64,000 nucleotides of DNA from Thuidium tamariscinum (Eukaryota > Streptophyta > Bryopsida > Hypnales > Thuidiaceae): NCBI GenBank assembly GCA_947034885.2, contig OX344751.2:4836001-4900000 (forward strand), written 5' to 3'. Below are positions 203 through 40,671 of this stretch, piece after piece. A program made the position numbers and the translations under genes. Position 1 is the first letter of the stretch. Each line of letters starts with the position of its first letter. The notes under the pieces were generated by a model. It was not told the DNA's origin and did no database searches. It saw only the letters and a program-made list of their open reading frames with translations.

Positions 203-3200
203 CGCTAACATTAGCAGTAAGCGCAAATATAGTCAAACGCTTCCTTGGTGGCTCTTGTAATTCTTCCCAGTCCCGAAACTGCTGCACCTGTAAACCCCTC
301 CCAAAATAAAGGCACAATCAGGGAACTCATCCTTGCCCGTTTCAATGGCTACCGATAGTATTTTAGAAGAAACGTTGAGAGCTTTTTTGGCAGTCATTCG
401 CCTCTCAATTACTCAAAAGAGTAATTCATATGAATCGCGGAACGAACGACCTACACTCAAATAGAGCAGAGTATTACCGCATGAGTGCCATCCAAAACAG
501 GCATCTGGAGGTCCATGAGCACTAAGTCGAACTGTGGAGGCAAATCCTTGTCATCTGTCGCAACCTCTTGATTAGCAGGTACTTTGCAAAGGACATCTAG
601 AGCCTCCCGGCCATTGCATACCACTGTGACATCGCAATTGATACTCCGCAATAAACGTTGCCCTACCTTGCGATTGACTGCATCATCCTCTGCCAGCAAT
701 ACCTGCAAAATTGTGCAAAGAAACTTGTTAGCAGCAGATTATAAACGGTTTCAAGGGTCACACTATAAAGCCACATCTAAAATGTTATAAACCATTCAGT
801 GTTAAACCCTAAGAAATGCACTGTGAGGATTTTTCAAAACCAAGGTTCATCGAAAATGAAAAAAGTCACTGAATCATGACAAATTTCACAACCTTGAATG
901 TATCTTTTCTTAAAGTGCCACTTTACACTCACTAAAAGAGAGAACGTGGAAACCTTTCTGCCTTGAAGAAGCTCTATTCCGTCTAATGGAGGTGCATCAG
1001 GACTTTGGTTGGATGAAGAGCTGGGTGGGCTTTTTACGGTTTCTTGTGCAACTGCTTTACCCTTTGCAACCTTGGCTGCTCCTCCAATGTAATTGGGCCT
1101 GGTTGGCGCAGAAATTTCCCCATTATGCTCTGGTTCTGTACTGTGCACCGAGCACTCATTCCACCAAAAACTCATACCAATCAGGACAAAATCGTCAAAA
1201 GCAAAAACAAGGACAATACCAGATTTTTACACAGCAAATGCTACTGCCAAAATATTCCCAACACTCACAATTCAAGCAGTAGAACCCGAAAATTTATAAT
1301 GTAGGTTGAAAAAAGTTTACTTCAAGGCTGTCATCTTTGGCACAGCATCCTGAGATCGGTGATGCAGCTGGACCTGTACTGGCTGCAAAACAACCTCAAT
1401 TTTACTAGTTATAATGGCCATAAATACTCCTGAATATGAATCAACTGAACCCATCAGCACTCTTCAAACTTTGAAGATATGACAGTCAAAGATAACGATA
1501 GTAAAAAATTCAGTGACAGAAAGACGTTCCACGAGGCATTCATACCTCAAGAATGTAGACTTCCCCTGGTGGTCTTATCGACTTTATCATGACGGCTTCG
1601 TCAAGACTCGATACTCTGGGCCCATTGGCCATGTTAAGCGGGAGTAAAGAAGCAGTGGCAATGGCTGGAATAATCGGCTTATTGTCCCCACCAACTGGAT
1701 CCCAATTTTGATTCGGAACCTCCGGTGAACCACTCCAGGGTACGGATTGTCTCCGTGGTCGAATGGCTACGGGGGTGTCTCCTTCAACTAGCTTTGGACC
1801 TCTAGTAACTCCTTTGGACTGGTTTGCCAGAAGCTCTTCCTGATGAGTCTGACAAGATGTAGACATTTGTAAGGTTGAATAGAAGTGCATTTTCGAACTC
1901 ACGGAAGAGTCAAATCAACCCTGGATCACATCTCGTTAAAAGTGATCTGACTAGTGTTAAGTCTTTAGCAACAGCTTACCACTGGAGAGAAATTGAGAAT
2001 GTCTTGCTCGACCCACGCATACCACCTGCCAGGTGACAACTTTTAGGCATAATTGGTTTTATGTCTCATCTAATTACGACACCATGTCGGTACTTCTCTT
2101 TTCAAATCAATGGCTGATTGAAGGAGATGCTTGGGCGGAATAATTAATACTGAACTACCTTGTGCCAACAGCTCGGCCCGTTGCCTGCACTGTAACATAA
2201 GAACGGTCTTCCCTCAACCGCCTGTATATCACACTACCTCCAGAAAGTTCACTGTCTCTTAGGTGTAACATCTGCAGAAGAGAAACCCGACGATCAGTTC
2301 GAAGAAACAAACCTGCATCCGCCTGGATGCAATCCCAAATCGTGCTGAAATACATAGGAGAATCTGGTTTGAGAATTACACGCTGGACTACGGGGACATC
2401 GTCAGAGTGGCAGGCACCCCAAGCAGCTGTGCCAAGAAGCTCTTTTGACGTCCAACCCGTCGTCCGCTTAACGCTAGGGGACACATAGCACAACAGCCAC
2501 TGTCCAAGCAATTCGACGCTACTCTATGTTAAAACCTTGTTTGAACTAACGCAAACCGTGAATAAGGCAGTTGCAAATGACTAGGTAAGTTCAAAGGGTA
2601 TCTCGTATTTGTATGCATGTGATATCATGAAGTTGTGTAATGGAAGATTTTAGTCGTTGTAGGGTTTGCATTGGCTATTACATGGTTTGAGATGGACCTG
2701 GCTGCGGTCAGCGATGTATACAGTCCAAGGCGAAGTAGCACTGAGCATGAGTATATCTGTAACTAACGAAAGATCCAATCCCTCAGCTGCAGCCTCCGCC
2801 ATCCACACCTCAGGAGTGAGTAATCTGCACGCCTCTCAAAAGTATGGTCCAAACAATTATGCCTGTCAGTTTCGACCCCGGCAATTTTTTTAAGATTTTG
2901 CAATATATCTTCGTAAGGCTTCTACGATTCTCTCATCGTTCTATGACATTAGAGAATTAAACCATGCAACAAGGAAGAAAGTCTGAAAGAATGGTAGCAC
3001 ATGTGGCACAAATGCATCTGTGCAAGTGAGAGCAATGCGATGCAATGTAAGATGTCCACCAGGAATCGCAAGTTCAGCAAAAGCCTCCCCTCTCCCACAA
3101 TAACCTGTAGCCGCTCTGATAAGCCGCAGATCACTCTCACACGAAGATTGCCAAACCAGACAAGACATTGCTCTTCAAACGATGACAGGGATATTAGGTT

Positions 3201-7686: not shown

Positions 7687-8103
7687 TCTCTACAACCTCG
7701 TAAATCTCATTATGGTTCCATCAATAATGGCAGATTGGACATTATTTTATGTCCCACAAATTTTTGCACACCAAGTAAATACAAGCCACTCTCATGCTCA
7801 ATCATTTAATTAGTATTCAAAGACTCTTTTGAGGCCTCTTTGTGGGTTCAATGACCTCCTTATGCTTAGAACTCTAAAAACGTTTTTTTGATTTCTAGGT
7901 TTCTAATTATTGTTGGTTATTTGTAATTTTTTTAATTTAAAGTAAAATTTTGCCTATAAATACTCTTCAAACTTCATTGCTTATTCATGAAAACTTGTGA
8001 CGTTTTTTGATACACGTGAGTATTCAAAAGCCAAATGTAAATGACAAGATAAAAACAAATGGCTACAAATCAACCTTGACTTTAAATTGACACCTTGGTT
8101 GTT
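7687..8103. other. AT-rich non-coding stretch
   Basis: Nothing recognisable. It ends exactly where the large foldback starts. Confidence 0.5.
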
Positions 8104-9236
8104 GTATAGTGGGGTACCAATCAAAATGTTGTTTTCGAATTTGCAGTGAGAAAAATTTCAGTACTGCCAACTTTGAAAGCCTCCTGAGAGCTCAAAAATT
8201 GGTATTTTACCACGAAATTCTTACCGCAGCATCATCTTTAAGTTAATTATATGTATGACAAATTTCAAGGCCAAAAGATTCACCAAAAAAAAGTTATTCA
8301 AAATCTACGAATATTGATAGATGTGGAAATTTTTTCATTGCTGCCAACTTTGACAGCCTCCCAAAGACTGAATTTTTTTTTTGCCATGAAATTTTTGTTA
8401 TGAAACAATATCTATGTTTCTAATATGTATAAAAAATTTCAAGGTAAAATTTTTTTTAATAAGAAGATATTTGAAATCTCCCAACAAGTGTAGTTTTGAG
8501 AAATTTTTTACAATTGCTAACTTTGACACCCTTCCAAGGGCTGAAAAATTGATTTCTTACCATGAATTCTTTTTTGTGAAGTCATTTCTATGTTGATAAT
8601 ATGTGCTCCAAATTTCAAGTTCAAATTAATTACCAAAAAAAAGATATACAAAATCTTCCAACATGTGTAGTTGTTGGGAGATTTTGTATATCATTTTTTT
8701 GATAATTCACTTGAACTTGAAATTTGGAGCACATATTATCAACATAGAAATGACTTCACAAAAAAGAATTCATGGTAAGAAATCAATTTTTCAGCCCTTG
8801 GGAGGGGGTCAAAGTTGGCAATTGTAAAAAAATTCTCAAAACTATACCTGTTGGAAGATTTCAAATATCTTCTTAAAAAAGAAAATTTGTACCTTGAAAT
8901 TTTTTATACATATTAGAAACATAGATATTGTTTCATGACAAAAATTTCATGGCAAAAAAAAAAAATTCAATCTTTGGGAGGCTGTCAAAGTTGGCAGCAA
9001 TGAAAAAATTTCCACAGCTACCAATGTTGGTAGATTTTGAATAACTTGTTTTTGGTGAATCTTTTAGCCTTGAAAGTTGTCATACATATAATCAACTTAA
9101 AGATGATGCTATGGTAAGAATTTCGTGGGGAAAATACCAATTTTTGAGCTCTCGGGAGGCTTTCAAAGTTGGCAGTACTGAAATTTTTCTCACTGCAAAT
9201 TCAAAAACGACATTTTGATTGGTACCCCACTATACA
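8104..9236. repeat. 1.13-kb foldback (long inverted repeat)
   Basis: Arm 1 (8104-8662) is the near-complete reverse complement of arm 2 (8673-9236), with a spacer of about 10 bp. The outer ends are TGTATAGTGGGGTACC and GGTACCCCACTATACA; the centre is GATATACAAAATCTTCCAAC facing GTTGGGAGATTTTGTATATC. Each arm contains three degenerate direct repeats of about 173-177 bp, starting at CTGCCAACTTTGAAAGCC (8164), CTGCCAACTTTGACAGCC (8341) and TTGCTAACTTTGACACCC (8514), so six units in total. No open frame. Transcription through it would give a very long double-stranded RNA. Confidence 0.9.
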
Positions 9237-12060
9237 TGGAATGGAAGTTTGGAACTTATATTCTTGAACACAGGAAAATCATACTTTTTTTCAATATGAA
9301 AAAAATATTAGCTAAACTAGATTCAACTTAAAGATTGTCTTTGAGATTAGTTTATGTAATGGTTGACCTAAGTAAATGGATATAATTTCTTAATCATTAT
9401 TTGTAACCTTTAAATCAAAATGATTACTAGAGCAATTTTAGTATTTGCATTGTGTAATGCATTTTTACATTTAAAAATATATATAGACTACGATGGTAAT
9501 CTTTAGAAATTAAGTATATGTGAAATAATTATATAAATCAATTAAAGATTGAAACTTTGACAATTGAAGTACAAAAAGAAACTATTAATAATGCCTAATA
9601 CTACAAATAGTGGATGAAAGTTTCTAATGATTATCTTTTGATTTCATGTATTCATTTGGATTTTCATGCATCATTGATGTATATGATTTGGTTTATTCCT
9701 TTTGTGTTAAGAGAAATTCTTGATATTTTGATTGATTCTTTCTTTGAGGCTTCAAAATTGAATTGTTTTTTATTTCATTTACTACAAATTTCAATATTAA
9801 TAATGCTAGATAGTGGCTTTATTTTATTATTATCCTTTAATTTTTAGCCCTATGATAGTTGAAAGTTTAAAAATATTTGAATGATCATTTTTCAATATTT
9901 AGTTGAAGTGAAAAATGGACATATTCATCTAATCAAACTCTAAAAGATTAGGATGGGCTTTTTGTCAACAAAAAAACTTAGGGCAACTCACTGTGGATAG
10001 AGTTTTTATTTTTATCTTTGAAATTTTCACACAACATGTAGACAAAGAATGTCTTTAAGGTGCAACAATTTTTATAACTTTTGACGATATGATTTTGAAT
10101 TCCATAACTAAAGTATCAATAATTTGAGAGTATTTAGATTGATACTCTATATTTAAAAGGTTAAATAATTGTATAGTGAATAATCACATTGATATAATTA
10201 TCATTTTCAATTGAAGTAGGATATTTGCTTGAGCAATCATTTCTTCAAGAGTGATTCAAAATGGTTTAGGTGGAATATTTGTAGAGAGGTATCTTTTTTC
10301 TTTGTGGATAAAATCACCAAATTGCTAATAATTCTTAGAATGATATTGTAATTTTAGGTGAATGTAGCTATTTTGAGATTAATAATTTTTTCTTACGTAT
10401 ATTTTCATGTTTCACCTCTTGATAGGTATATAAATTTATTAATCCATCTAATCAAGGGTACTTTAGGCATTGTCCAAAAAAGCTTACATTCATATGCTTT
10501 TTATCCTTTAGGGCCTAAAGTGCCCTTTCTAGACTCATTGGTCTACATTGCACATAATCAAATAAACTAAACTTTGTCTCAATTTGAGAGCATGGAAGAA
10601 ATGTGAACTTATTTTGTTAAATCACTTGCTTAAGTTTCATGTGAATATGTGGACTAATTATAGAAATTTTTGAGAAATTCACATTTTTTTATTATTCATT
10701 TAGATTCCCTTCCTATGGGTTCAATATTCATTCAAAATCACTATATATAGGCTTGTTAGATGCACAATTTCTGTATTGTTTTACTTGTTTAGATCTTGCT
10801 TTGAAGTAAACCATTGGCTTTGAATTTTTTTTTTAATTTAAATTAAAACAACCAAAATAGGCTTGCTTCTGAAGGGTTGATAAATATTATTTCTCCCAAT
10901 GCTTTATCTAAAGATTATAAAACTATCTTTGGAGATCTTTACAAATAAGTAGTTGAAATCCCTAAAACTTTTTTTTCATCATAACAATGTGTAGAATAGT
11001 CTTATTTCTTTCTATTAATACATATCATGAGTTTTTTTCAAAACTTTGTTAATAAATTATGATTGGATGAGTTATACTTCTTAAAACATCCATTAGCCAC
11101 CCAATAGATGGTTGAAACCTTAGATCATCCTCAATGCACTCTCCAATTTGCCCTTTTGAATAAACTTTTAGCTTTTCATTAGTTTATAATTAAAATTTGA
11201 AATTCCTTGTATTGGAAGCACACCCAAAAATATTTCAAATAGGTTCAAAATTAAATTTTAAATATTAAAAAATAGAAATAATCATTTCAAAAATTTAGTA
11301 AATGAAAAAAGTTATAGAGGTTTGGACACATCATTAGTACCATGTACATTGCATTGCAAAGCATTACACATTTGTGGTGCAATGTACATGATACTCATGA
11401 TTTGCCTAAAGCCCTATATTTTTATTACAAAGTATCATTTAGCTAACTTTTCAAAGCTATTTTTTTCATTTTCCAGTGCCTAAATTTTAAATTTTTTGGG
11501 TACTTATTCAAAGAACTCTGGGATGCTTTTCCAATGATAGAAATTTCCAGTTAGAATTAAAAATTGGTGAATATATAGAAGTTTATTTGGAGGGAAAAAT
11601 TCCATAGTGCATTGAAAATGTCCACTAAGATTGAAAAGTGGATTGGAATCTTTTAAGAATTCATCCAATTTACAAGGCTTGTAGGAAACTAGGCCAAAAA
11701 ATATGACCCATTTCTCAACGCCAAATCTCATTCAAATAATGTATTAGGAGGGATTTGAAGGTTCTTGAGGACTGTTTCAGGGTTTGTTCCCAAAACTGTT
11801 TAGAGAACTGTTAGTTGCTGTCAGCCAACAATTAACCAATAAATAAATAAATTTTGGGTCTTGAAATATGAAAAAAAGTCCAATTTTAAAAATTAAATTT
11901 TTTTTAATGACCTCGTATGGTCTCAACCACATTGGAATCTTGCGTTTTGGGGTTCCCACGACAGTTCCTATGTTCCCAAACTGCAAATACTTGTAGTCAT
12001 TCGGAGCCCTCAAATTCCTCCTAATGTTTGATTATTCAACTAAGCTATAGGAGGGATTGT
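9237..12060. other. AT-rich non-coding stretch with repeat fragments
   Basis: No gene recognised. About 10018-10090 matches part of the 36208-36790 repeat (TGAAATTTTCACACAACATGTA, then CAACAATTTTTATA). A short imperfect hairpin lies at 11331-11400, where GTACCATGTACATTGCA faces TGCAATGTACATGATAC. The remaining frames are low-complexity. Confidence 0.5.
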
Positions 12061-13264: not shown

Positions 13265-13397
13265 AGAGCATCCCCATGCCTGCTCTTCAAAGCAACACTT
13301 TAAAGATTTTGGACCACTGATCTTCCTTGTCAAAAGAAGATCAATGGTCCAGAATGTTTGAAGTGTGGCATTTGAAGAGTAGGCATGGGGATGCTCT
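13265..13397. mobile_element. 133-bp hairpin MITE, AGAGCATCCCCATGCCT ends
   Basis: A perfect 17-bp TIR (13265-13281 with 13381-13397) continues inward as an imperfect stem (CTCTTCAAAGCAACACTTTA with its partner, GGACCACTGATCTTC with GAAGATCAATGGTCC) to a loop of about 10 nt near 13325. Almost the entire element is one stem, so its transcript would look like a microRNA or siRNA precursor. It shares its ends with 4661-5064. Confidence 0.8.
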
Positions 13398-14905: not shown

Positions 14906-17900
14906 AAACTCCATTGGACAGTATATTACATTACTATAGAATTTTGAAGAAAAAAAATAGTTGTCACGTGAAAAAAAAGTAAATTTCAAAGTAAGTCATG
15001 TCTAAATCTTGGTATTTTATGCTACGATTTGGAATTACTCAGTTACATTTTGTTCAATTTTCCCTTAGAAGCTTAAAAACACTATTTGTACCTTTTCATA
15101 TTGGTATCATTTTAAATTGTTGTACGCAAAATTTGAAGGAAGTCAACATTTATTCAACTAGTTTGTAAAAAGACTAAAGACAATTCATGACGTGTACAAG
15201 TGATTCAGCTATTTTGTATACAACATTTTGAAATGGTGTACACCAACATAAAAAACTACAAAACATATTTTTAAGCTTTTAAGAGAAAATTGAACAAAAT
15301 ATAAAATAATTCCAAATTGTAGTGGACAATATTGAATTTTAGACATAACTAACTTTGAAATTAACCTTCTTTCACATCACAACTAATTTTTTTTCAAATT
15401 AACTTCCATAGCAATGTATTATACATTGCATACTACAACTTTTATGCATTATTTTTGGACTTTGTCCATTATTTTATACTTATGGTATGGTTGTTTGAAT
15501 GAAAAGGTTGCAAATCCATAATTAGTTTTGTTTCTCACTATTGATACCTGCATTGTAAGGTGATGAAAGTCCCTTCTAAAAAACTTTGTTGTTGGCTTGA
15601 AGAAAGTTTGGATGCTTTGTTGAATTGACAACAAATTTTGAAGTAGCCATTGCTCTTTTTCACCTTGCAATTGTAGAAGATGCATTGTGTTCTTCAAATT
15701 TCATATTTTAACTTATGAACAAAGCCCTTTAGAGCAATGTTTTGTTCAAATAACTTCTCGTTTATCTAAAACAATGTTTACATCTTTTTAAAAGACACTT
15801 GAGATGCATTTCATCCATTTAAAGTGATCCAATATAGTAAGATTGTGAACATTCATTCATCTACCTACAATATACCATCTCTTTGATATGTAAAATTAGG
15901 ATCAACTATTAGTTTGCAAATCTCTCTTGGGTGGATCACTCTTTGTATATTTCATACCTCTTGTGCAGCAAGGGGATATTTTTTGGGAGGCTATTTACCT
16001 CGAAAGCTCAAATAAATGGTCCCCTATAATTGCATAATTTGTGAAAATGTCCTATATTATGGCACCCTATACTTACTTATATTATGTAGGTGAAAGTATT
16101 TTTTTCTAGGATATTTTCTTTATAAGGGAAAAAAGTGAATTGAAAATAAAGTTAAAAGCAAAAAGGTTAGAGAGAAGATCAAGTAAATTTGTATGAAAAG
16201 TTGGGATGTTTACTTGGCTCAATATTCTTTTTTGTTGTCACCCTTTTTTTGTATATAGAATTCAGTCAAGTGAACTAGTATGACAATATTACCACTTGCA
16301 ATACACAAAAATCCAAAAATTGAATGTACAAGAAATTTTGCAATGGGTGAAAAATACAATTTGACAATGCATGAAAGGAAAACAATAGAATTACGGTTTA
16401 CAAAAATTGCAATGCTTTAAAAAATGAGAAAATGTCATCCGTGGGTTCTAAACAAGAATCAATCTTGAATACACCTCTCAAAATAATTAAAGGCACTATC
16501 TTTTACATGCCATAGAACTTACATCCTAAACCCTAAACCCTAAACTAGCTCTAAATAAAATTGACCCTACTAAATACAATTTCCAAGATTCTAATCTCTA
16601 GCCTTTAAATTATATTTTAAAAATTTAATACTTGAGATTTTTTAACTACTTATTTTACTTATAATACATCTTTGATTTTGAAAGTCCCCTACTTTATTTA
16701 CAAGTCCTTTATAAATTTTACCTTGAAACAATAAAACCTATGCTATATTATACCAGATGTGGTTCTTAAAATGCAAGAAGTGATCGACCCGGGAAATCTC
16801 TTCAATAATATTTTAGTGAAGTCTAATTTAAATCACACACTAAGAAAGTGAAACTAAAATTAAGTGATGAAAGTTCATTGATGGCATTTGAATATAACAT
16901 GCAAAAGTTACTATAAAGAGATGTAAGCTTGGTTTCTTTTTCTCTCACAAACAAAATCCAAAGCTTTTAAGTATACGGGTTCTTTTACGGGAAAGGTCAA
17001 CTAGTCTATTGTGTAAGTGTCTAAGGTCACTTCCAAGTAGATCTAAATGGGATTTTATAATGGTAATTTTAGAAATAAAATGTTAAACTCTCCAAAAGCC
17101 CAATTCATAATATTGACTTATAATTTATGTCAATTGGACCACTTGCAACCCTACCACAACTTGCAATGTCATGATAAGACAAGTTGTACCAACTTATAGA
17201 CAATTAGACTTACATGATTCAACATTTCATTTCCAAAACATACAAAACAATTGGAGTCAACTTTAAATACAATTGGTAATCCCTCACAAACTCACAATTG
17301 ATTGAATTGCAACTCTGTTGGACTCATAGATTTTCAATTATCAATATAGACATTTTAAACTACACTTGGTCTTTGACAAATTGACAACTTATCACATTTG
17401 CAACACTTGACCCTACGCATGACTAATTATTCTTGACAAAAGAAACTAGACTTAGCATAATTCAATGATACATCTTTCAACTAGAACAAACAAACACAAT
17501 AACAACTAGACTATGTAGAATTCTAATCTTATTAATTCAAAGCAATTCTAAACATAGTAGACGCAATCATTGCACCTTTCCAAATTCATTTCATCTTCCA
17601 TCAATATAAATAGCAAGAAAATTTCATCTTGCTCAACAAATCAATGTTTGCCTGACTTCCTCGTCGATTTTGCAAACTTGCAACTTATAATCCCACCTGG
17701 ACTTTGCTTCATTCTCAACAATGACAATCTAACCCACCTGGTCAATTTGCCTTCTAAACTTTCATCTAACAATCTCTTTGAGTCCACTCTCTAACAATTC
17801 TTTTGTCTAGTCGCTTACAAATAATTAATTGATGGTTTCACAAACACAATTGGAGTTTCTATACTCACAATAGTCACAAGCTATTGACAAAAAAAATTCA

Positions 17901-23078: not shown

Positions 23079-26000
23079 ATGTGGGGGAGCATGGCGGAGT
23101 GGTTCACGTTCCTCTTGCGATGCTGCAAACGGCGTCGCCGACCCCGTGTTGTGCGTGTCCTTGACCCCGAAACTGAACACCGCGACAGTGGATTTCACCG
23201 CCCTCATCGCCGAACATACTATTACAGCATGTTCTCTGTTCGCCTGGCGATCATGGTATGTTTGCATCTGTATAAGCTTCCCTCCTTTCTTTTAATTCTA
23301 AATGAAGGTCTTCAAACGAAGGCCTGTGCCGACTGGCTGGCCATTATGTGCATCATATTATGTTCGTGGTTATCAGAGACGGTTGGAATTTGATAAATGT
23401 ATAGGCTTACTTCTACGGAGGGAATTGACGTCCACATGTGCAGGCATGCTTAAAATTTAGAGGATTGTTTGGAACTGGCTCTGACAAACTTAAGAACGAG
23501 CATTTTAATATCCAGCAGACCTTGATGGATTCTAATTTGGAGATGACATGGGATGTTTACATTCTGTGACAGATTATGTTGGCTATTCTGATAGCGTTGT
23601 TGACAATTTTAACGTGGCATTTCACCACGGTGTATACTACAAGGTCAATCAAGACCTTAGCTTATGACTTACGCACCGAGCTTCTCAACCGTCCTATTGC
23701 TCGCATGTGGAATTTACTAAACAGTACCGTTGAAGCTACCTTGAGTCAGGTTCAACTATCACAGTTTGTATTAGGGCAATATGCTCTTCCTATCAGCCCT
23801 GCTATGCAAATGGAGGTAAGTGCATCTACACAGCGCCTAGCTTTCTGTTTACATATACCACCACTGCAGGAGAAAACATGCGATGACACTTAGGAACGAA
23901 CTTATTAATTTTATATCCAATCTTTAGGATGTCGATGTCGATGTGTAAGGACTTTTGACGAATTGAGGTGCTTCGAGGAAAACCAAATCAATCGATCAAA
24001 TGTGTCGCTTATTCATTGCTTGAAGAACAGATGATGATCGTAATGTATTTATGCATTCTGCAGGCACACAAGACTATGCGTAATGTTACTTGGGCACTTT
24101 TTGTGAGTCGAAAATCCGTGAAGACCTTCACTATTGCCTATAGAAATGGCCAACTGCAAGCGTTTGATAGAGTTGCTGAGTCCAATGTAACCTCCTATGT
24201 ATACTCGAATCCTTTGAATGGCACCGCTTTGAATGGGGGAAACTTGACTAGTTCTTCACCTGCTCCTGCTCCTGCTCCTCCTGTAATTTGGTGGCCTGAT
24301 GGACCCCTGAATAGAAGCAATATTACGTGGTACTCGGAAACGGTTAATCCGTCTACCGGAATAGCAATTGCCCCTCCTGTTGTAACGGCTTCATATGATT
24401 TATTCCAGGATGTCGATGATGTGCTCGCACTGAAGAACTCGGAAGTTTCATGGCGCGTTACTGTAAATAATCTTTCCGAGACACCACTTTTATCAAGCGC
24501 AGCTCCGATTCGTCATCCGAGTTCAGGTACAATAGTGGCGTTGGCTGGCCTCACAACTGCACTCTCCAGTATAAATCAGTTCCTTCGAGAGCTCACTTCT
24601 TCTCACAGTGGGTATTTGTACTTGACAACACCGAAAGGTCAACTCTTAGCCTCATCCACAAATGCGTCCATGATAGACACCTCAACGCCAAGCAGAACTT
24701 TAGTGTTGGCTAATGAAACCAGTGACCCAGTCATAAGAGCTGGAGCTCAGTGGCTGAATGAGCACTATGGTTTTGAGGGGCTAGTGACAACTGTGGTTCA
24801 TGAAGAAAATGTCGTTCTGGAGGGTAAACGCTATTACATCGATACGTTTTCGTTGGTACTGCCCCGATTGGAGCTGGTAATGCATCCACGTTCTGTGTGA
24901 TCGTTTTTTCTCGTTTCGCTTTCCCATTCATTTAGAAATAATAAGAGAAAACTAAGGTATAAAAGCTTCAGAATTGAAATTCTTGTTAACCTGCCGTACG
25001 TACACATATTGTGTTAGTATTGCAACTTGTTTATTACACAGCGTTGTTATACTGTACCGAACGGAGTTTTTCAATATCTCTATAATACTTCGATAAGTAT
25101 GCTGTAAGAATTTTGACTTTTTTGCATTGATTTATATATTGCTTCGCAGGTTGGTGTGATTATCATACCAAGATCCTACGTAATGGGTGAAGTTGACCGA
25201 AGGGGAAAAGCCACGTTGGCTATCTTGATTGCAATTTCTAGCTGCATACTTCTTACCGGCTGCGTCTTTATCATTTTTTTTACAAGTGGCGTTTCTACCG
25301 AAATGAAATTGAGAGCTGAGTTAATCAACCATCTTGATGCAAGGAGACGGGCAGAGGCCTCAAGTAATTATAAGAGTCAGTTTTTAGCGAATATGAGGTA
25401 TTTTTTCTCCGAGCGCATTGTCGATGAATCTTCTTAGTGGCTTTGACTTGAGAATCTTACGGTTGAGACCTTAGAAGTTTAATTTTCGATGATGACGACT
25501 ACCCGAAGAAGGAACAGCTGTCGGTTTCTTGGGTACAAATTGGCATTCGTTAGGAGCTCTTTGCAAGCGAAGGACTGGAGCTTTTAAACATTCATTGTTG
25601 TTACTTTCTTTTGTGCAGCCATGAGCTTCGCACACCAATGGCTGCAGTGATAGGTCTCTTGGACATCCTTTTATGCGATGAATGTCTTTCCTCCGAGCAA
25701 GTTAACATGGTGTCTCAAATACGTCGCTGCTCTACTGCGCTCCTTCGTCTTCTCAACAACATTTTGGATATTAGCAAGGTGCTCTTTTGAGTCATCTGAA
25801 TGCTTGTAATGACTTTAGTTCCCAATGTAGAAACTGGGGAGAAAGGATATGAATACTGCTGTCAACTTGTGAGAAGTTTCAACTTTCAATGATGGACTCC
25901 GCTTGCTGTAGCTCGTAGCGGACATGCGGGTTCGTGAGTTCTCACAATGTCCATCTGTCTGTTTTATTGAAATCAGGTGGAGTCCGGCAAGCTTCTTCTT

Positions 26001-29000
26001 GAAACGGCCGATTTTGATCTCAACCGAGAACTCGAAGGGTTGGTGGACATGTTTTCAGTCCAATGTGTTGACCATGACATTGAGATTGTGCTGGACTTGG
26101 CTGGTAGGTCTTCCCGATAATCTTTTTGTGAAATATTGCTGTGAAGCTTCGGGAGTCAAGGATTCTGGGTTTTGAGCTGTCCGACAAGATTCATGGGATA
26201 TTAAGTTTTTATCATTCTTCAGGCTAAGTCAAAATGGAGCCAATTAATAACTTTTATGCACCCCAGATACAGGTTGTTTTTCGTAAAACGCAAGCTCAAT
26301 AGTAGGCATGTGCACATAGTCACTACCTCAAGTATGTATTAGCGGTATCAGATGGGCGTGAAAATTTCAGAACGTTTCTCACTTTTCCAAAACGTGCAGA
26401 TGATATGCCCCGGATGGTTAGCGGAGATTCCGCACGTACGGTGCAAATTTTTGCAAATTTGATTGCGAATTCTGTCAAATTTACTTCTGGTATGTTTGAT
26501 AACCTGCTTCGCATTTCCTTGTCTTCGTTTAGAGATTTGAGGACTTCTAAACGTCATATACAGGTTTGTATTCATTTTGGTTGTTCTATTGAACAGCAGG
26601 TCATGTGATACTGCGTGGTTGGTGCGGTTTTCCTAATATGTCGGGAACCGCAATAAGGAACGGATTACTGTTTGGGACGAACGATAGTTCGTGGGATCAG
26701 AGCAAGTCGAACCATGAATCAGCCGGAACTAACAACCACGAGCCGGGACAGTTTCTCCTGTGGTTTGAAGTGGAAGACACTGGATGTGGTATGGTCCAAC
26801 GTAACATCTTGTTACTGGGATACAGTATGATTATTAGCGGTGCGATCCAGGTCGTTGTTAAAGGTTACTTATTGTATAGTGCCAATGTCTGTCTTTTACT
26901 GACATGCTTACTGAATAAGTTATTGCCGTTGAGAAATGGCATGTAAGTAATACTATCTAATTGATGTGCGATGTTCATGGCAATATTCTTTTGATAGTTG
27001 GAAGTATTCTATATTCATATGTCCTGCTGCCTGTTGAAGAATCCACGAATAATTCTGCATCAGTCTCCGTTGCAATCCTGTTCTTACATCACGATTCCAA
27101 TTGCAGGCATTGATTCAAGCAAGTGGGAAGCTGTATTTGACAGTTTCGTGCAGGCAGATCCTTCCACTACAAGGACGTACGTAAATTTTCTAGTATTTCC
27201 CCGTTATAGTATACCAGCATAATCGTGACGGTCTTAGTTTTTCTGGAATGACTGACCTCGACTGCTGAAACTAATTCATTGATTTTTCACTTCAGGTATG
27301 GAGGAACAGGCCTTGGACTCTGTATAGTTCGTTCTTTGGTAAGTGGTCCATGTCCCACTGGATGGCGAATTTCATCAAAATGGCGAAATATCATTACTTT
27401 GACAGTTTTTACAGTTCAGATTGTGCAGTGTGAAATCAAAATCATGCATAGATTTTTGAAATCTATATTTGTCCTGGATTTCTAAAACCCATACGTGTCC
27501 TAAATGTTTCAGACTGTGCGGTCTGAAATCTAAAGCTGTTATAGATTTTTGAATCCATACCCACAGTAGATGTCAATTTTTAGTTCAGACCGCGCGGGCC
27601 AAAAATGGCATGTGGAATACCGCCATTTTAATAAAATTCGCCATCTGGGTAGTTGCTGGAGCGAATCATTGGTTTGCGAATGGTTTACTTTACTAAATCC
27701 GATTGTCACTTAAGACGAGTTTCTCATGGCAGGTTCGAAAGATGGGCGGAGATATAAAAATTGTCAAGAAGGAGGGACCTGGAACACTGCTGCGTTTTTA
27801 CCTTCTGTTTGGCCAACCGGTTGACTGCGAACTTGACATACCTCACATGTCTGTTCCTGCCGAGCTAGAGGATGCAAAGGTATACTGATACTACTTACTC
27901 GTCAAACCTATCAGATTGTACTTCCGTTCTTTGAACCTTTATGCTCTTTCTGGCTTGCTTACAGGCTTCAGCTGCCAATTGTTTAAATCAGCCTAGAATA
28001 GTATGGATTGCTAATAATCAGTGAATGTTTTGTGTGGCAGGTACTCCTTGCAATGAAAGGAGATGTGGGAAGAGGTACTCTCGCACAGTGGATGATGTAC
28101 AGAGGCCTTCATGTATATGAAGCTTCTGAGTGGGACGAAACAATCCAAGTTCTTCAAGAATTATTGGATGATCATCATAAAGACAGTTTGGAAAACGGCA
28201 CTGATTGTTCTGAGTTTGTTGCTCCCGTAGCAAACTCCAGAAAGGCTGGCCGACCGCCCGCAGCATCTCGTGATTGTAAGGAATTACCGGACGATGAAGT
28301 GAGTTTGGTTTCATCGGGAAATCTAGAGAAGTGGAAAATACAGAATTTTAAATTACTGGCTGTCCTTGACGCTGAACTTATACCTTGGTCAGAGGATACC
28401 AACCAAGTCGTATCCTTTCTGAGTGTGCTTGATGGATTTAGAGATCGGGGAATTATGATCTCTTGGCTTTTCTCACATGATACGCCGAATGCACTAAAGA
28501 CTCAGCTGCGGCGGACAGGTTATTCGCTCTCTGCAAATCAACCTTTGTACAAGTCAAAATTATTGCAATTATTGTCGTCTATGTTGGGCTGCGAGGAAAG
28601 AGGGAGCTCAAGGCATTCAAAGAGTGATCCTCAAGTTCCGCAAGTTATAAGCAGCAGTCGACGAAACTCGGGATACTTCGATGACATCAAGGCCGCTGCA
28701 ATGGATCGTCGTGAGTTGGTAAAGATTCAGTCACAGGTTTGTACCTTTCTTTCCATTCGATGTTATGTCTTGTAATTAAGCTTTGGGTTGCACCATGTTT
28801 TCTGTGTGCTTGCGACGATACTCAGTAAATTGCCGTGTATGATGAGGAAGGTGTGAAGAGAACACGCTTTGTGTTTCAAACGCAATAGCTATCATTTGTG
28901 GCATGCTAAACTACATTCAGGTGCCTTGCTGATGTATCTATCAAGTCTAATCGAGGTCTTCATATCTTACATCAGGTCCAGAGCAAGTTGGGGCTTACTG

Positions 29001-30568
29001 AGGCTAACAAGTCTCTGCCTAAAGTTCTAGAGATATGGCCTTCAAATGAACTGGCTCGCGTGAAGAGCATTCATCCAAGCGACTGGAAAATTGGTGAAAC
29101 AGGTCTTCCGTTGGACATAAATTCAGTGCATGTGAACTCAGAACACTTTCCTGTTTCTCGAAAGGATTTGGATCGTTCAGTGTCTGTCAACAGTGGACCA
29201 AGCTGCAGCGTTCATAGTTCAATTCCGTTACAGCTACCCGAGGAACAAGAATCCATCAACCTGAGTAATCTTGGTCCAGCAGCAAGTCCTGGCAGCTCGC
29301 CTAGTAATTCGAATGTTAGTTCTCCTGAGATTCGTATTGGGTCGATGAAATCATCCCATTCTGTTAGCACTGATTCTTTGACTTCAATTTTGCCGCTGGA
29401 TAAATCTGAAGGAGGGAGAGCTGATCATAATCATGTTGTGGACATCCCTCCTGTGCTGTCCGGTCTAGGGAATTATTCCCATTCAGAAACACCGGATGCA
29501 TCTGACAGTACTGAACAGGGAATCACGAGATCACAGGACTCGGGTACTGTTAGTGTCCATGATGTCAACAGCGAACCGGTAATTATTGGACGAATTACTG
29601 ATGAGGCTGTGAATGAGGATTCTCGAGCCATGCCTGAACAGCGGGATGGATCTGTCGAAGCTGACTCGAGATATGCTTCTAAATCTGAGACTCTTCTTCA
29701 TGCGGTCGGGAATCAAACGAACTCTGCGGGAGTTACATCAGAAAGTGTGATTGCGCCTGCATCGAGCTCTTCTTTGTCACGTCCGCATTCTGAAGTAAGA
29801 CCAAGTACGCGGAATTTTACAGCCAAAAAGCCACCCGCTAACCGACTAGGTCCCAGCAACGCACTTGCTGGAATTCGCATCTTGCTCGCAGAGGACACGC
29901 CTGTTTTGGCTAAGGTTGCGACTATTATGCTGGAGAAAATGGGAGCTCGGGTTGTTGCTGTAGCGGATGGCATACTAGCTGTTGAAACCATTGGCAGATC
30001 ACGCGGTGATCAAAGTGTTGTTAATTGCGAGGCACCCTCTACTCCGTCCGCGGTCGACCAGTTCGATCTAGTTCTCATGGACTGTCAGGTGAGCCAGACC
30101 AGAACTAGTAGTGCTTCAATTCGTTTACTTGTCATGTAATATAGTCTTTCCTCGAAGCTTCCTAACCAATTTGTGTTTCATTTTCACGATACAATTTGTG
30201 TGTTAAATATCTTGGCTTCCTCATTCTGAGTCTCTTCACTTTAAAATCCCAATTTTCCTTTTGTGTAGTCTGTCTGTTTCTTTGGCAGTTGGATCAATCC
30301 TTGTTGTTCGGCTCGTGTTCGAGATAACCTAAACTCTTGTCCTGATCAGATGCCTAGAATGGACGGATACGATGCAACAAAGGCCATTCGGAAAGCTGAG
30401 GAAGGCAAGGATTGGCATTTGCCGATTGTTGCATTAACTGCTCACGCGATGTCATCCGACGAAGCGAAGTGTCTGCAAGTGGGGATGGATGCTTATCTCA
30501 CGAAGCCCATTGATAGCAAGCTTATGGTGTCAACAATCCTTGGTTTGACCAAGAAGGATACAGTCTAA
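23079..30568 (+). CDS. AHK1: AHK1-type hybrid histidine kinase (14 exons, 1444 aa)
   Basis: Exons: 23079-23255, 23573-23815, 24064-24876, 25150-25397, 25619-25778, 25977-26103, 26400-26489, 26600-26788, 27107-27176, 27296-27338, 27733-27879, 28041-28736, 28976-30088, 30350-30568. An in-frame ATG at 22986 would add 31 residues; 23079 is a choice. Order: basic N-terminus, TM1 (about 52-80), a sensor loop of about 350 residues with many N-glycosylation sequons and a Pro-Ala run, TM2 (about 432-456), HisKA with phospho-His 495 (SHELRTPM), N box (about 607-614), G1 (DTGCG, 679-683), G2 (GGTGLGL, 708-714), a degenerate receiver-like segment from 770, a Ser-rich linker, and a true receiver with Asp1370, Thr1402 and Lys1424. 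The kinase core follows plant AHK1 (osmosensing) closely; Arabidopsis AHK1 is about 1200 residues, so this one is longer, mainly in linkers. Predicted membrane sensor that phosphorylates itself and passes phosphate via its own Asp to HPt proteins. Confidence 0.93.
27361..27645. mobile_element. MITE inside intron 10 of the AHK1-like gene
   Basis: The left end GATGGCGAATTTCATCAAAA with TGGCG is the inverted repeat of the right end CGCCATTTTAATAAAATTCG with CCATC. About 285 bp, inside the 394-bp intron between exons 10 and 11, which is longer than most introns in this gene. It also carries internal repeats (TTCAGACTGTGCGGTCTGAA-like motifs). No coding capacity. Confidence 0.7.
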
Positions 30569-35300: not shown

Positions 35301-36207
35301 TTTTTTAAAGTGCTCTAAATAAACATGCACCTAAAAGATATTTTAAGATTTCTTCAAGTCTCACTTTTAAAATTCATTATTAGTAGAAAGAATTCAAATT
35401 TTGATTTTGATTTTTTTAAATTTATGATTTTCATTTATAATCTACAACAAAAAATAACCTCATTATAATTTTGACTCTATCTTTGCACTTTGATTTAACC
35501 TAAAGAGAATGCTAAGGATTAAAAAAATTTGATGAAAAACTTTCAAAGAAATTATAGAACAATGAAGAATGCATTTAAGAATTGCAATAGTACTCATGAT
35601 TTAAGAATTTGATCATTTTTTATTAACTACCTTGGTAATAAGACCATGTACTTCTAGAATTTAGTAAAGAATTTGAAATCATTCTACAATATCAAAATTT
35701 TGGAGTTCATTTATAGTATATACTAGGGTGGTGATGCTCTCCAAGTTGTAATATTTCCCCTCCTTTAGTACATATACACCTTATGCATATACCCTATGGG
35801 ATAATGTTTAAAGGTTTAAGAAGCCCACTAATTTAGATTGCAATGTGGTTTTGTTGTATATTCAATATTCAAGGTGCAAAAATTGATAGATAAACCGATT
35901 ACAAAAGTTTGTATATTTTGTATTGAGCGAATAGCACATGGCACTTTCAATTTAAATCATTATTAATTCTCTTACATGTATCAAAAGTTGAAAAGTGGCC
36001 ATGTGTCGTATATACACGTTGTATTTGAACATGATGAAATTCAAATATTGAATTGACCTCTAAATGAAAAATGTTAGTTATTGAATTTTCTATCTACTAG
36101 TTTATGTCTTTTCATATTTTTATACATATTTATATTTTAAGAATGCTTCATATATTAAAAGTAAAATACAAGATTGTATATATGGTCCCTATCAAACCCT
36201 TAAGGAT
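32351..36207. other. AT-rich non-coding stretch
   Basis: No gene or RNA gene recognised. Frames up to about 90 codons are low-complexity and have no domains. A decayed transposon remnant cannot be excluded. Confidence 0.45.
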
Positions 36208-36790
36208 TACCCCCTAAAAGACCAAACAATGTTTTTTGCAACATAGCAATTTTGGGCAATTGACTATGAATGGAGGTTTTGTTTTGTTTTTCTTTGAAAT
36301 TTTCACACAACATGTACCCAAGGAGTAGCTTTAAGACCCAACAATTTTTATAGCTTCTGACTGCATGGTTCAAATGTTATTGTATGATATGTAATTTTCA
36401 TTGGCTAGTAGGCAATCTAAGCAATTAAAACAAATTCTTCAAAAATCCCTTTTTCTTATTTAATAAATATTTGAAATTAGTTTTTTAGATTTATATATAT
36501 TTGGAAAGCTTTGAATCATTTCATTTTGATTAATGAGATGAAAGTTATAAGAGTTTTAGTTTGTAGGTAGTTTGTAGGAAGTTATGGAATGTCTATTCTA
36601 TAATAAACTTTAAAATCCTTTATTTAATTTGATTTTTAATATTTATTAAATTTAATTTAAAAATTGGGTGTTGATTTTTTATTACAACATGATTACACTT
36701 ATTGGGATTGACATTTTTCAATTCTATAAATATATTGCTGACAATTTAGTATTTTGAATCATTATCTTTTTTTTCCTACTTACTATTTCT
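36208..36790 (-). repeat. Truncated copy of the 39304-40235 element, opposite orientation
   Basis: It starts at a TTACCCCCTAAAAGACCAAA end and continues with GCAACATAGCAATTTTGGGC, TGAAATTTTCACACAACATG, TGACTGCATGG, TGAGATGAAAGTTATAAGAG and GGGATTGACATTTTTCAATT, all matching the reverse complement of about 39700-40235. The far end of the element was not found. Confidence 0.65.
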
Positions 36791-38204
36791 TTTGTACATA
36801 TTGTACAATTCCAAATGATTTGAAAATTTTCAAGCATGTAGCCAACTTGAATTGAAAAATGAATCCAAGAAGTTTCAACCATTTTCTATATTTTGTCATA
36901 CAAATGTGGCCTTGTGAAAATATAGCAAAAAACTTTAGGGTTAAGAGGATTTTATATTTTGGGGCTTGCACTTTCATTAGGATTTTTCACACCTTTTTCA
37001 CCTCATTCTCAATCTTCAAAAATGAGGATATGGAAATCTCTCATTGAATTGTAGAGTACCCATTTTTTGAAGATTGAGAGTTTTTTTTCTTTACTTTGGA
37101 GAAGAATGGGCCAAGGAGGATTGACCCTTTTCTTGCCTCTAGGTGGGATTTTTGGTGCATGACCATCTCTATAGAGTTATTCCAAATGGCCATTCTTTTA
37201 ATTCACTTATTTTTATTTTTATTTAACAAATTTAAACATCAAAATACCTATTTTCTTGAGATTTGACACTTTTCAAGTTCTCCTACTTAGAGAATTTTTC
37301 TATGCATTTCCTTCCCCGGAAGCCTTAATTTTAAAAGTGTATACATAAGTCATATATTTTTTTAATTTAAAAATTAGTTTTCTAAATTTAAAGTACTCTA
37401 GAAAAAGTCATGAGTACTATTGCAAAACACAACAAAATCGATAGGTGTTTCTTGCAATGACCCCCCTACAAAGAATAAATGTAAAAAATTGTCTTCCCTA
37501 TTATTTTGTCCTACATTAATCTAACATTCCATCATATCTCCCACTTAATTTGGGGCTTCTCATAGCAAATATAAGTTCAAAAATTTCCAAATTTCATCAT
37601 GGTGACAATTAAAAATAATTATATTCTTCGAAGGAATAAAGCCAAAGGATAATGAGGGATGATAAAGTAGGGGTAGTTACACCTTCACCAAACAAACTTT
37701 GCAAAATAATGAAAAATTGATGAGACAAAATAGGATCCAATAGGGAGTAGTTCCGAGTAAAGAAGGTGTGACGCCCTATTTGGTACAACGAGTAAGGAAG
37801 ATCACAAATTGTAGAATTGATTTAGTTACAAAATACATTGGAGGAATTCTATAAGGTTCTGAGACCCAATCAACAAGTGTGAAGGAAGATAGGCTAATGT
37901 TACTTGTATTCGGCTTGTGCTACCATGCCAAATAAAAAATGACAAAGTAAAATGGTTGGGGTGAATTAACCCCCTCGCTTGACCCTTCCAAATCATTCCA
38001 GGGGTGCAAGTAAAACAAAAAGTCCTCTATTTTGGGCTTGAAAAATGTATCTCTTACACCTTCTCTAGCTAATTTAGGGCCTGAAGTTGCAAATATGAAT
38101 TAGAATTTGTAAATTCTTGTCATGTGTGGAAAATAAAAAAATCTAGGATTTCTCCAAAGCGCGGAGCAAGGGGATTAGTTCATAGCTAGGGTGAATTGAC
38201 CTCC
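36791..38204. other. AT-rich repeat land
   Basis: No gene. About 37216-37320 (TTTTCTTGAG, TTCTCCTACTTAGAGA) recurs in reverse complement at 63900-64000. About 37006-37081 forms a small inverted repeat (CTCAATCTTCAAAAATGAG and TTTTTTGAAGATTGAGAG). AGGGGTAGTTACACCTTCAC near 37670 resembles, inverted, the sequence near 41870-41910, hinting at ends of a larger composite element. Confidence 0.4.
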
Positions 38205-38283
38205 TTATTGTCCTTTCTTATCGATGGATGAAGAGGATGGAGCAACAAGGATCTTTGGTGCCCCATCGTTTACTTTGCCCCTC

Positions 38284-38598
38284 TGTCTTACTTGGTCCTT
38301 GTTTCCAATCCCTTGCCCCCTCCATCTTACTTGAGTTCTTTCAATTGTTAATATGATTTGCCTCCATCTTGTTGTCTCCTTCCTCTCGTGTCTTACTTGG
38401 TCCTTGTTTCCAATCCCTTGCCCCCTCCATCTTACTTGAGTTCTTTCAATTGTTAATATGATTTGCCTCCATCTTGTTGTCTCCTTCCTCTCGTGTCTTA
38501 CTTGGTCCTTGTTTCCAATCCCTTGCCCCCTCCATCTTACTTGAGTTCTTTCAATTGTTAATATGATTTGCCTCCATCTTGTTGTCTCCTTCCTCTCG
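38284..38598. repeat. Minisatellite, 3 x 105 bp
   Basis: Three nearly identical tandem units start at 38284, 38389 and 38494 (each begins TGTCTTACTTGGTCCTTGTT). Because 105 is divisible by three, the minus strand stays open across all units (38642-38205, 145 codons), repeating a 35-residue block beginning with ERKETTRWRQIILTIERTQ. The high identity implies recent expansion. Confidence 0.9.
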
Positions 38599-39303
38599 TG
38601 GTCTTGCCTACTGTACTCAATCTTTGTTTGTAAGTTTTGCACTACCTAAGTGGAGAACAACTACATTTTCTTATATTGAAGATATGAAGAAGTATCATGA
38701 TTGATACAATTTGAAGGTTCCCCATTGCTATCAAGAAGCCATGGTTGTACAAAACTTAATGTGAGTCAAGTTGAATAAGATTTTCAAAAGTCAAATCAAA
38801 GTCAAACAATGTACTTATACAAATCAATAAGGAAAAGTTTGAATGTGCCTGGAGTGGATTAAACATTCAAACGCTAGGCACCACTTGGCCTTTTTGACTT
38901 TCAATTTGTTCCAAGGTTGCAGGACGGACAATTGGTGCTCGAATTTGAGACATAATCCTTCAATTACATTCCATTGAGGAAAAGAGTTGAGGAAAATAAA
39001 TTAATAATATGTAGTGAAGGTATATGATTGAACTATTTTATTCTTATATATGATATGAATATTTTGCAGGACATGAATGTTTTACTTGATATTTTGGTCT
39101 TCAAATCCATGAGAGCACTATCCACAAATTCATTTTGCAAAATTCACAAGGCATTTGTTCTTTTGCCCTCTACTAGTGATTAATTCTCCATTTTTTCCAA
39201 ACTCACATTTGTCATCAGCCTAGTAATTTCATTGTAAGACCAAAGATGACATAATTGATGCACTACTTCGATCATTTTCTACTTGCAGTCATTTGTGTTC
39301 TTA

Positions 39304-40235
39304 TTAACCCCTAAAGGTCAGAGACTATGTCTTCACCAAAAACACACCAAAACTGCCATGTCTACTTCAAGCACCAAATTTTTGAAAAAAAACATTTTTA
39401 GACACATGTAACCATAGGATCTTATAGTACACTTGTGTGAAAATATGTAGAAAAAATTTCAGAATTTTCCACCATATAGATTGCAAGATATTAGCATTTG
39501 AATTGACAAAACCCCTTTTTTTGCCCCTACAAAAAAGTGGGCAGCTGCACTTCACAAGGTGACATTTCTATGAAAAAATGTCCAAAATGGTGGTGCTTCT
39601 TTGGAATCATTCTTCACGGCAAGTTGGCTATATGCTCAAAAAAATTCGCATCATTTGGAATTGTACAACATATAGGAAAAAATTAATAAGTAGAAAGAAG
39701 TAGAGGGTGATTCAAAACAATAAATTGTTAAAATTTTATTTATAGAATTAAAAAATGTCAATCCCAATGGTTGTAATGTTGTGACAAACAATCAAAATCC
39801 AAAGTTTTAATTTTTTTTTCAAAAATACTTAAAATTGACGAAAATAAAGGCTTTCAAAGTTTATTTTAGAGTAGAAAATCCATAACTGCCCACAAACTAA
39901 ATCTCTTTATAACTTTCATCTCATAACTCAAAACAGAGTGATTCAAAACTTTCTGAATATATGTACATCTAGAAAAACAATTTCAAATTTTTAATTTAAA
40001 AAAAAAGTTTTTATTAGAAATTTTTGGGTTGCCCGCCGACCAATGAAAACTACATATCATGCAATAACTTTTTGACCATGCAGTCAAAAGTTATGAAAAT
40101 TGTTGGGCCTTGAAGCTACTCCTTGAGCACATATTGTGTGAAAATTTCAATGAAAAAAAAACAAAACTCCATCTGTAGTGAACTGCCCAAAATCGCTATG
40201 TTGCCAAAAAACGCAGTTTGGTCCTTTAGGGGTTA
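39304..40235. mobile_element. TIR element, TTAACCCCTAAAGG ends, 932 bp
   Basis: The left end TTAACCCCTAAAGGTCA (39304) pairs with the right end TTGGTCCTTTAGGGGTTA (to 40235). The left part matches 6529-7180 and the right part matches 36208-36790 inverted. It shows an unoccupied site for the nested MITE of 6734-7015. No transposase domain seen. Confidence 0.7.
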
Positions 40236-40671
40236 CTGATCAATGCTTTCATAATTTGTCAATGCCTTTATTTCCTCACTCAAACCTTATAATCTTCATA
40301 TTTGCTTGGGATTGGTGAGATTGATCTCCAAGTTCAGTCATAGAAACTGTCTTACTTTAGGTCTCACAATTATTTCAATGATTAAAGACCAAATTTTCAT
40401 CCAAGTACACAAGTATCAAATAGACTATGTTTCTTCACTTATTGAGGAGGCATTGTGGATTAAGACACTAAAGGTTTAAATCTTTGATTTTGTCCCTCCT
40501 CGATACTCACAAAAATCCAAAACGATGAGAAAAAAAAGCAACAAGAATGAATGGTATTCATTACCTATGTTGAGACTCAAAACCTCATCATTTATGTATC
40601 AACTCAGCATTAGATGAGGACATCAACTTGTTCAAAGGAGTCACAAACAGATTCACAACAATCAACAAAAA

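What the first reader, a model, noticed from the sequence alone, without database searches (positions are those of the whole stretch)
8104..9236. Large foldback whose arms each hold three degenerate 175-bp repeats
Two arms of about 560 bp pair almost perfectly around a 10-bp spacer, and each arm is itself an older triplicated unit (CTGCCAACTTTGA-type starts at 8164, 8341, 8514). The unit repeats are diverged while the arms are nearly identical, so triplication came first and inverted duplication later. Such a structure could produce long double-stranded RNA and phased small RNAs, or be a foldback transposon.
Basis: seen in the sequence. Interest (0 to 1): 0.7.

Follow-up and report, generated by a model that had tools for sequence, protein, structure and literature searches.

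The report
Hairpin-shaped offspring of a Tc1-like transposon
The long inverted repeat is one of roughly a thousand hairpin-shaped, gene-less copies of a Tc1-type jumping gene in a plant-like genome, and versions that still carry transposase sequence sit in the same genome, so it is a transposon rather than a dedicated RNA gene.

Summary
The foldback is real: 8103-9236, arms 8103-8663 and 8672-9236, about 93-94% identical, 8-nt loop, three ~175-bp units per arm. It is a non-autonomous transposon. The window's own 363-Mb genome has 2155 matches to its terminus (control 2), suggesting about 1000 copies; 19 of 25 convergent pairs of perfect ends listed on contig 1 lie 1378-1413 bp apart. The usual copy has a ~275-bp centre that the window copy lost by a ~271-bp deletion. 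In 57 termini TA is constant, the TG before it varies in 9-10% with transversions, and CAGTGGGGTACC follows: TA duplication, preferred target TGTACA; related empty sites carry one such site. Parents were found: 5 of 48 Tc1/mariner-type (PF13358) transposase matches lie between convergent copies of the same arms, in units of 3.6-3.9 kb; one ends in the window family's own terminus, 95.5% identical over 110 bp to the foldback consensus. So it is best read as a deletion derivative of a long-TIR Tc1-like element. dsRNA or small-RNA output was not testable; a CG/CHG mutation footprint fits methylated, silenced copies. New variant of a known kind.

The parts
8107..9232 (.). Non-autonomous foldback element proper (1126 bp); ends of CAGT type, here TAGTGGGGTACC (C>T at a CHG site)
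   Evidence: Ends set by position-wise conservation in 57 termini; arms
8103..8106 (+). TG + TA: left half of the TGTACA-type target site; TA (8105-8106) is the target-site duplication
   Evidence: TA 57 of 57; T 52 and G 51 of 57; empty sites
9233..9236 (+). TA + CA: right half of the target site; TA (9233-9234) is the target-site duplication
8107..8663 (+). Left arm
8672..9232 (-). Right arm
8165..8341 (+). Left unit 1 (177 bp)
8342..8514 (+). Left unit 2 (173 bp)
8515..8663 (+). Left unit 3 (cut short by the central deletion)
8997..9174 (-). Right unit 1 (178 bp)
8821..8996 (-). Right unit 2 (176 bp)
8672..8820 (-). Right unit 3 (cut short)
8664..8671 (.). 8-nt loop, at the junction of a ~271-bp deletion relative to the usual 1.4-kb copy; GTTG shared at the breakpoint (read by eye from the printed sequences)

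Best explanation
A non-autonomous, foldback-shaped member of a Tc1-like (IS630-Tc1-mariner) transposon family. Shown: about 2155 dispersed terminus matches (about 1000 copies) with sharp ends; TA at the ends followed by CAGT-type termini; a preferred palindromic target TGTACA; and relatives of 3.6-3.9 kb in the same genome in which the same arms, in inverted orientation, enclose a PF13358 transposase domain. Inferred: the 1.4-kb foldback arose from such a parent by loss of the coding middle and was multiplied by the parent's transposase in trans, cut-and-paste into TA. The window copy then lost its ~271-bp centre, leaving a nearly closed palindrome. Also inferred: the tandem ~175-bp units act as repeated subterminal transposase-binding sites, as proposed for Galileo, and any transcript through the element folds into long dsRNA that feeds silencing.
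For: Copies: 1094 forward + 1061 reverse terminus matches with up to 3 mismatches, control 2 + 0; 463 + 420 exact 21-mers, control 0 + 0. Sharp ends: flanks differ between copies. Ends: TA 57 of 57 termini; TG departs in 11 of 114 letters, 7 of them transversions; positions 6 and 8-24 depart in 10 of 1026; Fisher p 9e-7. The first 100 exact 21-mers, compared by eye, lack the TG in 12. Target: ten related empty copies of one host repeat each show one site at the insertion point, TGTACA in 6 of 10; L016, L017 and (right side only) L029 sit at that position. Parent: convergent arms enclose PF13358 matches at C1:18461127, C6:4088093, C9:23405281, C4:31673555 and C4:9945000, and arm matches on one side adjoin C3:9678908; both termini were found for C1 (3613 bp) and C6 (3625 bp); the C9 end is 95.5% over 110 bp and the C1 end 84% over 326 bp identical to the foldback consensus arm.
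Against: Of six PF13358 right flanks sampled, three (L069, L070, L072) have other CAGT ends and no unit. L079, about 0.9 kb upstream of the C9 domain, shows no unit. The termini were picked by alignments that start at position 3 or before, which favours an intact TA (the one end so dropped, L022 right, also reads TGTA); a genome-wide count without the TA was asked for and never answered. The relatives of two other targets (L011, L035) do not show a clean TGTACA. No transposase was read in full, so catalytic residues are unchecked, and C1 and C4:31673555 have a stop inside the domain. Nothing shows present movement.
Confidence: 0.92

Rival explanations
1. A Mutator-like (FARE/Tm1 type) or P-superfamily (Galileo type) foldback with a target duplication of about 7-11 bp (lengths recalled).
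For: Most described foldback elements are of the Mutator superfamily, with exceptions (PMC4079207 passages); Galileo is of the P superfamily (PMC3573991 passages).
Against: In 25 copies with both ends no direct repeat of 2-12 bp stands out at the boundary shifts tested; the best case was 42% matching against 31% for shuffled partners, at 2 bp. TA is constant, and a PF13358 domain lies between the same arms.
Confidence: 0.02
2. A dedicated inverted-repeat RNA locus (source of long dsRNA and phased or 21-24-nt small RNAs) kept for that function.
For: Very stable predicted fold; CG and CHG sites show transitions in 16% of cells against 4% for CHH and 2% for A/T, as expected of methylated copies.
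Against: About 1000 dispersed copies with transposon ends; methylation is the ordinary fate of transposons. It could coexist with the transposon reading as a by-product.
Confidence: 0.04
3. Mobilised by pogo-like (PF03184) rather than Tc1-like transposase; pogo elements also use TA (recalled).
For: PF03184 is abundant: 303 first-look places, 150 scored and 150 matching.
Against: No convergent CAGT/TAGT ends in the 30 of 150 PF03184 loci that were fetched, with 1.5-kb flanks; the boundaries seen there have other ends. Tc1-like copies share the arms themselves.
Confidence: 0.03

Closest known systems
Tc1-like elements of moss, PpTc1 and PpTc2 (PMC4054914, passages seen)
   Same: 5'-CAGT...ACTG-3' ends, TA duplication, Tc1-type transposase in a plant genome
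   Different: PpTc TIRs are 33 bp; here the inverted ends are hundreds of bp, built of 175-bp units, and occur also as gene-less foldbacks
Tetris of Drosophila virilis (PMC4079207, passages seen)
   Same: Foldback with ~220-bp tandem repeats inside its TIRs, apparently non-autonomous
   Different: 8-10-bp target duplications and no autonomous partner found there; here TA, and transposase-bearing relatives are found
Galileo F subfamily, Drosophila mojavensis (PMC3573991, passages seen)
   Same: Long TIRs with up to three ~210-bp tandem repeats; such repeats proposed as extra transposase-binding sites
   Different: P-superfamily transposase
Minos and other long-TIR Tc1 elements (PMC7325037, passages seen)
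   Same: Tc1 family with TIRs of several hundred bp
   Different: Minos is from Drosophila hydei (passage); tandem 175-bp units are not mentioned in the passages seen
MuTAnT of Medicago (PMC4486113, search listing and start of abstract only)
   Same: Plant DNA transposon with a TA-rich target preference
   Different: Mutator-like

Membership tests
Tc1-like (IS630-Tc1-mariner) transposon family | TA target-site duplication | tested here: met
   TA 57 of 57 termini with variable bases outside it (selection caveat in the Against line); empty sites with one TGTACA-like site
Tc1-like (IS630-Tc1-mariner) transposon family | CAGT...ACTG termini | tested here: met
   C 46, A 57, G 48, T 57 of 57; departures are C>T (11), G>A (8) and G>T (1)
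Tc1-like (IS630-Tc1-mariner) transposon family | Tc1/mariner-type transposase in a relative with the same ends | tested here: met
   5 of 48 PF13358 matches lie between convergent arms; only 40 of 2462 arm candidates were scored
Tc1-like (IS630-Tc1-mariner) transposon family | DD34E catalytic spacing | not tested
   No transposase was read in full
Tc1-like (IS630-Tc1-mariner) transposon family | Cut-and-paste movement with footprints | not testable with these tools
   One genome only
Foldback-type element (structural class) | Long inverted arms built of tandem repeats with little or no middle | tested here: met
Mutator-like foldback (FARE, Tm1) | 9-11-bp target duplication (recalled) | tested here: not met
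   25 copies
pogo-like | PF03184 transposase between the same ends | tested here: inconclusive
   0 of 30 fetched loci show the ends, but 30 of 150 matches were read and flanks were 1.5 kb
Small-RNA-producing inverted-repeat locus | Transcript and phased or 21-24-nt reads | not testable with these tools
   No expression or small-RNA data held

The most novel reading that the evidence does not exclude
A Tc1-like lineage of a plant-like genome that has evolved a six-base palindromic target preference, (W)TGTACA(W), and keeps its two long tandem-repeat arms alike within each copy by arm-to-arm gene conversion, so that the palindrome arms of a transposon evolve in concert.
Probability: 0.35. Interest if true: 0.45.

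Novelty: new variant of a known kind. Interest (0 to 1): 0.35.

Why it matters
Foldback elements with tandem repeats in their arms are mostly orphans or tied to Mutator or P transposases (passages). Here one genome holds the foldbacks, about 1000 copies, and transposase-bearing relatives with the same arms, which ties this architecture to Tc1-like transposons and makes its origin testable. The TGTACA target, near 90% per half-site, is a strong preference for a TA-inserting transposon. For annotation, the locus should be labelled a DNA transposon, not a gene or RNA locus.

Tried and rejected
Direct-repeat TSD of 2-12 bp at boundary shifts -6 to +8: nothing stands out. Inverted flank similarity: none beyond rotated partners. 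TGTACA as part of the TIR: rejected, because TG varies about ten times more than the inner bases, often by transversion, and because related empty sites carry it. 6-bp TSD TGTACA: disfavoured by copies whose two sides differ outside TA, such as L011 and L023; not excluded for every copy. The 2.8-kb copy L013 as an autonomous element: rejected, its insert is hairpin-like, with no frame above 111 aa. Pogo partner; the near-matches to the terminus in L044-L047, L049, L061 and L064 look like chance. tRNA (bacterial settings) and Rfam at gathering scores gave nothing in the window. The 12-mers CAGTGGGGTACC and GGTACCCCACTG occur in 5 papers of the library, unrelated by title and start of abstract; the listings show no title or abstract describing this family.

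Full report
WHAT IS THERE. The window holds a palindrome at 8103-9236 with arms 8103-8663 and 8672-9236 and an 8-nt loop. The arms align with 531 identities, 31 substitutions (20 transitions, 11 transversions) and 5 gaps. Each arm has three units of about 175 bp, starting at 8165, 8342, 8515 and, on the other strand, 9174, 8996, 8820. Units in one arm are 65-75% alike; same-numbered units of the two arms are 93-95% alike. The window has no other clear copy, only short weak matches.

COPIES IN THE GENOME. The window is C3:4836001-4900000 of a 363-Mb, 19-contig assembly. The left arm matched 65 places, but only 40 of 2482 first-look candidates were scored. A 23-base terminus pattern with up to 3 mismatches has 1094 + 1061 matches against 2 + 0 for the reversed control, and the exact 21-base core has 463 + 420 against 0: about 1000 copies, if most have two ends. 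The 100 perfect ends listed, all on contig 1, form 25 convergent pairs under 12 kb; 19 are 1378-1413 bp, the others 1020, 1580, 1582, 1678, 1777 and 3372 bp. Thirty copies were fetched; 24 of these and the window copy have both ends placed, six have one.

THE USUAL COPY. It is about 1400 bp: three units, a ~275-bp centre made of a fourth unit and ~75 bp, then three units inverted. The window copy (1134 bp with target letters) lacks that centre; the best-fitting deletion is 271 bp, and the printed sequences share GTTG at the join. The near-perfect hairpin of the window is thus a secondary trimming of a looser one.

ENDS AND TARGET. Over 57 termini TA is constant, the two bases before it are T (52) and G (51) with 7 transversions among 11 exceptions, and from CAGTGGGGTACC inward the mismatch is about 1%, apart from the C and G of CAG with 19% and 16% (Fisher p 9e-7). 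The termini were chosen from alignments starting at position 3 or before, which favours an intact TA; the one otherwise placeable end so dropped (L022 right) also reads TGTA. A genome-wide count without TA did not complete. Of the first 100 exact 21-mers on contig 1, 12 lack the TG (searches compared by eye). No longer duplication was found. L016, L017 and, on the right side, L029 lie at one position of one host repeat, with flanks only 66-71% alike, so the insertions look independent; ten related empty copies, two of them in this window, have a single site there, TGTACA in 6 of 10 and variants in 4. Two other targets are less clear: L011's relative has an unlike stretch, and L035's relatives are mixed, one reading TGTATA. 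I read this as insertion at TA with preference for TGTACA.

THE PARENT. PF13358, the Tc1/mariner-type transposase domain, has 48 matches in the genome. Right flanks of six were sampled: three end with other CAGT termini (L069; L070 and L072 alike), and three contain the 175-bp unit (L071, L073, L074), with 67-81% identity over about 100-190 bp in the longer matches to the arms compared. Outward from C1:18461127 the end reads TA CAGTAGGGTCCCAATCAAA and is 84% identical to the foldback consensus arm over 326 bp; C6:4088093 has the same end, identical over 72 bp, and C9:23405281 ends in TGTACAGTGGGGTACCAATCAAAATG, 95.5% over 110 bp to the foldback consensus and 94.5% to the window arm. A pattern search gave both inverted ends for C1 (3613 bp) and C6 (3625 bp), and pairs about 1.4 kb apart with that same end. 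With L075 as query, convergent arms enclose the PF13358 match at five places (C1, C6, C9, and C4 at 31.67 Mb and 9.94 Mb; estimated 3680, 3865 and 3725 bp for the last three), and arm matches on one side adjoin a sixth (C3:9678908); both C1 arms round to 100% against the query (40 of 2462 candidates scored). Against this, L079, a stretch upstream of the C9 domain, shows no unit; it may lie between arm and gene, which was not shown. The C1 and C4:31673555 domains contain a stop. The second foldback in L021 has related units (about 72-73% to the window arm) but the terminus of the L070/L072 Tc1-like family, 2 differences in 33 bases: the arm design occurs with more than one Tc1-like end.

HISTORY OF THE ARMS. 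In a tree of 40 arms from 20 copies, both arms of one copy are sisters in 18 of 20, not all with high support; the exceptions are L024 and L032. Of 31 copies, six with one end and five truncated or interrupted ones (L020, L031, L035, L036, L037) were left out before this. Within-copy arm identity averages 94.8% (range 86.9-99.8), left against right arms of different copies 91.3%, while the left-arm and right-arm consensus differ at one column. Fifty-seven private changes are shared by both arms of a copy, against about 1.3 summed from the chance values printed. Either arms are converted within a copy, or source copies with like arms founded different lineages; only 20 of about 1000 copies were used, so unsampled subfamilies could explain part.

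SILENCING. CG and CHG cytosines show transitions in about 16% of cells, CHH 4%, A/T 2%. This is the footprint of CG and CHG methylation, which I take, from general knowledge, as plant-like. The host species was not identified; a receiver domain and a weak Cache-domain match in one gene region, and other exons, fit a plant, and 'moss' would be a guess.

MECHANISM. Shown: family, ends, target, transposase-bearing relatives with the same arms. Inferred: deletion of the coding middle gave the foldback; the parent's transposase moved it in trans; the units serve as repeated binding sites (as proposed for Galileo, PMC3573991, passages); read-through transcripts could form dsRNA.

VERDICT. A real structure, ordinary in kind (a non-autonomous DNA transposon), notable for uniting foldback architecture with tandem-repeat arms, Tc1-like parents in the same genome and a strong TGTACA preference.

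Noticed in passing
window 36190-36918 and 39551-40253: Two inverted copies (77%) of a host repeat that is a target of this transposon in other loci; both hold the empty site TGTACA (36802-36807 and 39662-39667).
   Followed up: partly
window 14921-15424, 11131-11615, 13265-13397: Three further palindromes (72%, 65%, 85% self-match), with ends unlike the foldback family; perhaps other MITE-like elements.
   Followed up: no
window 38284-38605: 105-bp tandem repeat, 3.1 copies, 99% matches, inside an open frame (38205-38645, minus strand) so that 35 residues repeat.
   Followed up: no
window 23959-30568: Exons of a hybrid-histidine-kinase-like gene (name recalled): weak dCache_1 match below cut-off, receiver domain PF00072 at 30269-30565.
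   Followed up: partly
window 43315-43668, 60660-61351, 2158-2523 (minus): Exons matching PP-loop family (PF01171), dynamin central region (PF01031) and a PAS fold (PF08447).
   Followed up: partly
own genome, L039-L068: Many pogo-like transposase domains (PF03184): 150 of 150 scored places match, many in long open frames; L045 and L047 are 99% identical over 3.5 kb.
   Followed up: partly
L021 2966-3957: A second foldback with related units abuts the first at its TGTACA end and carries the terminus of another Tc1-like family of the genome (L070, L072).
   Followed up: partly
L024 and L032: The arms of these two copies do not group together, and one arm of L024 groups with one of L032: possible chimeras.
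   Followed up: no
L013 about 830-2260: A hairpin-like insert of about 1.4 kb, unlike the foldback, lies in the centre of this copy.
   Followed up: partly
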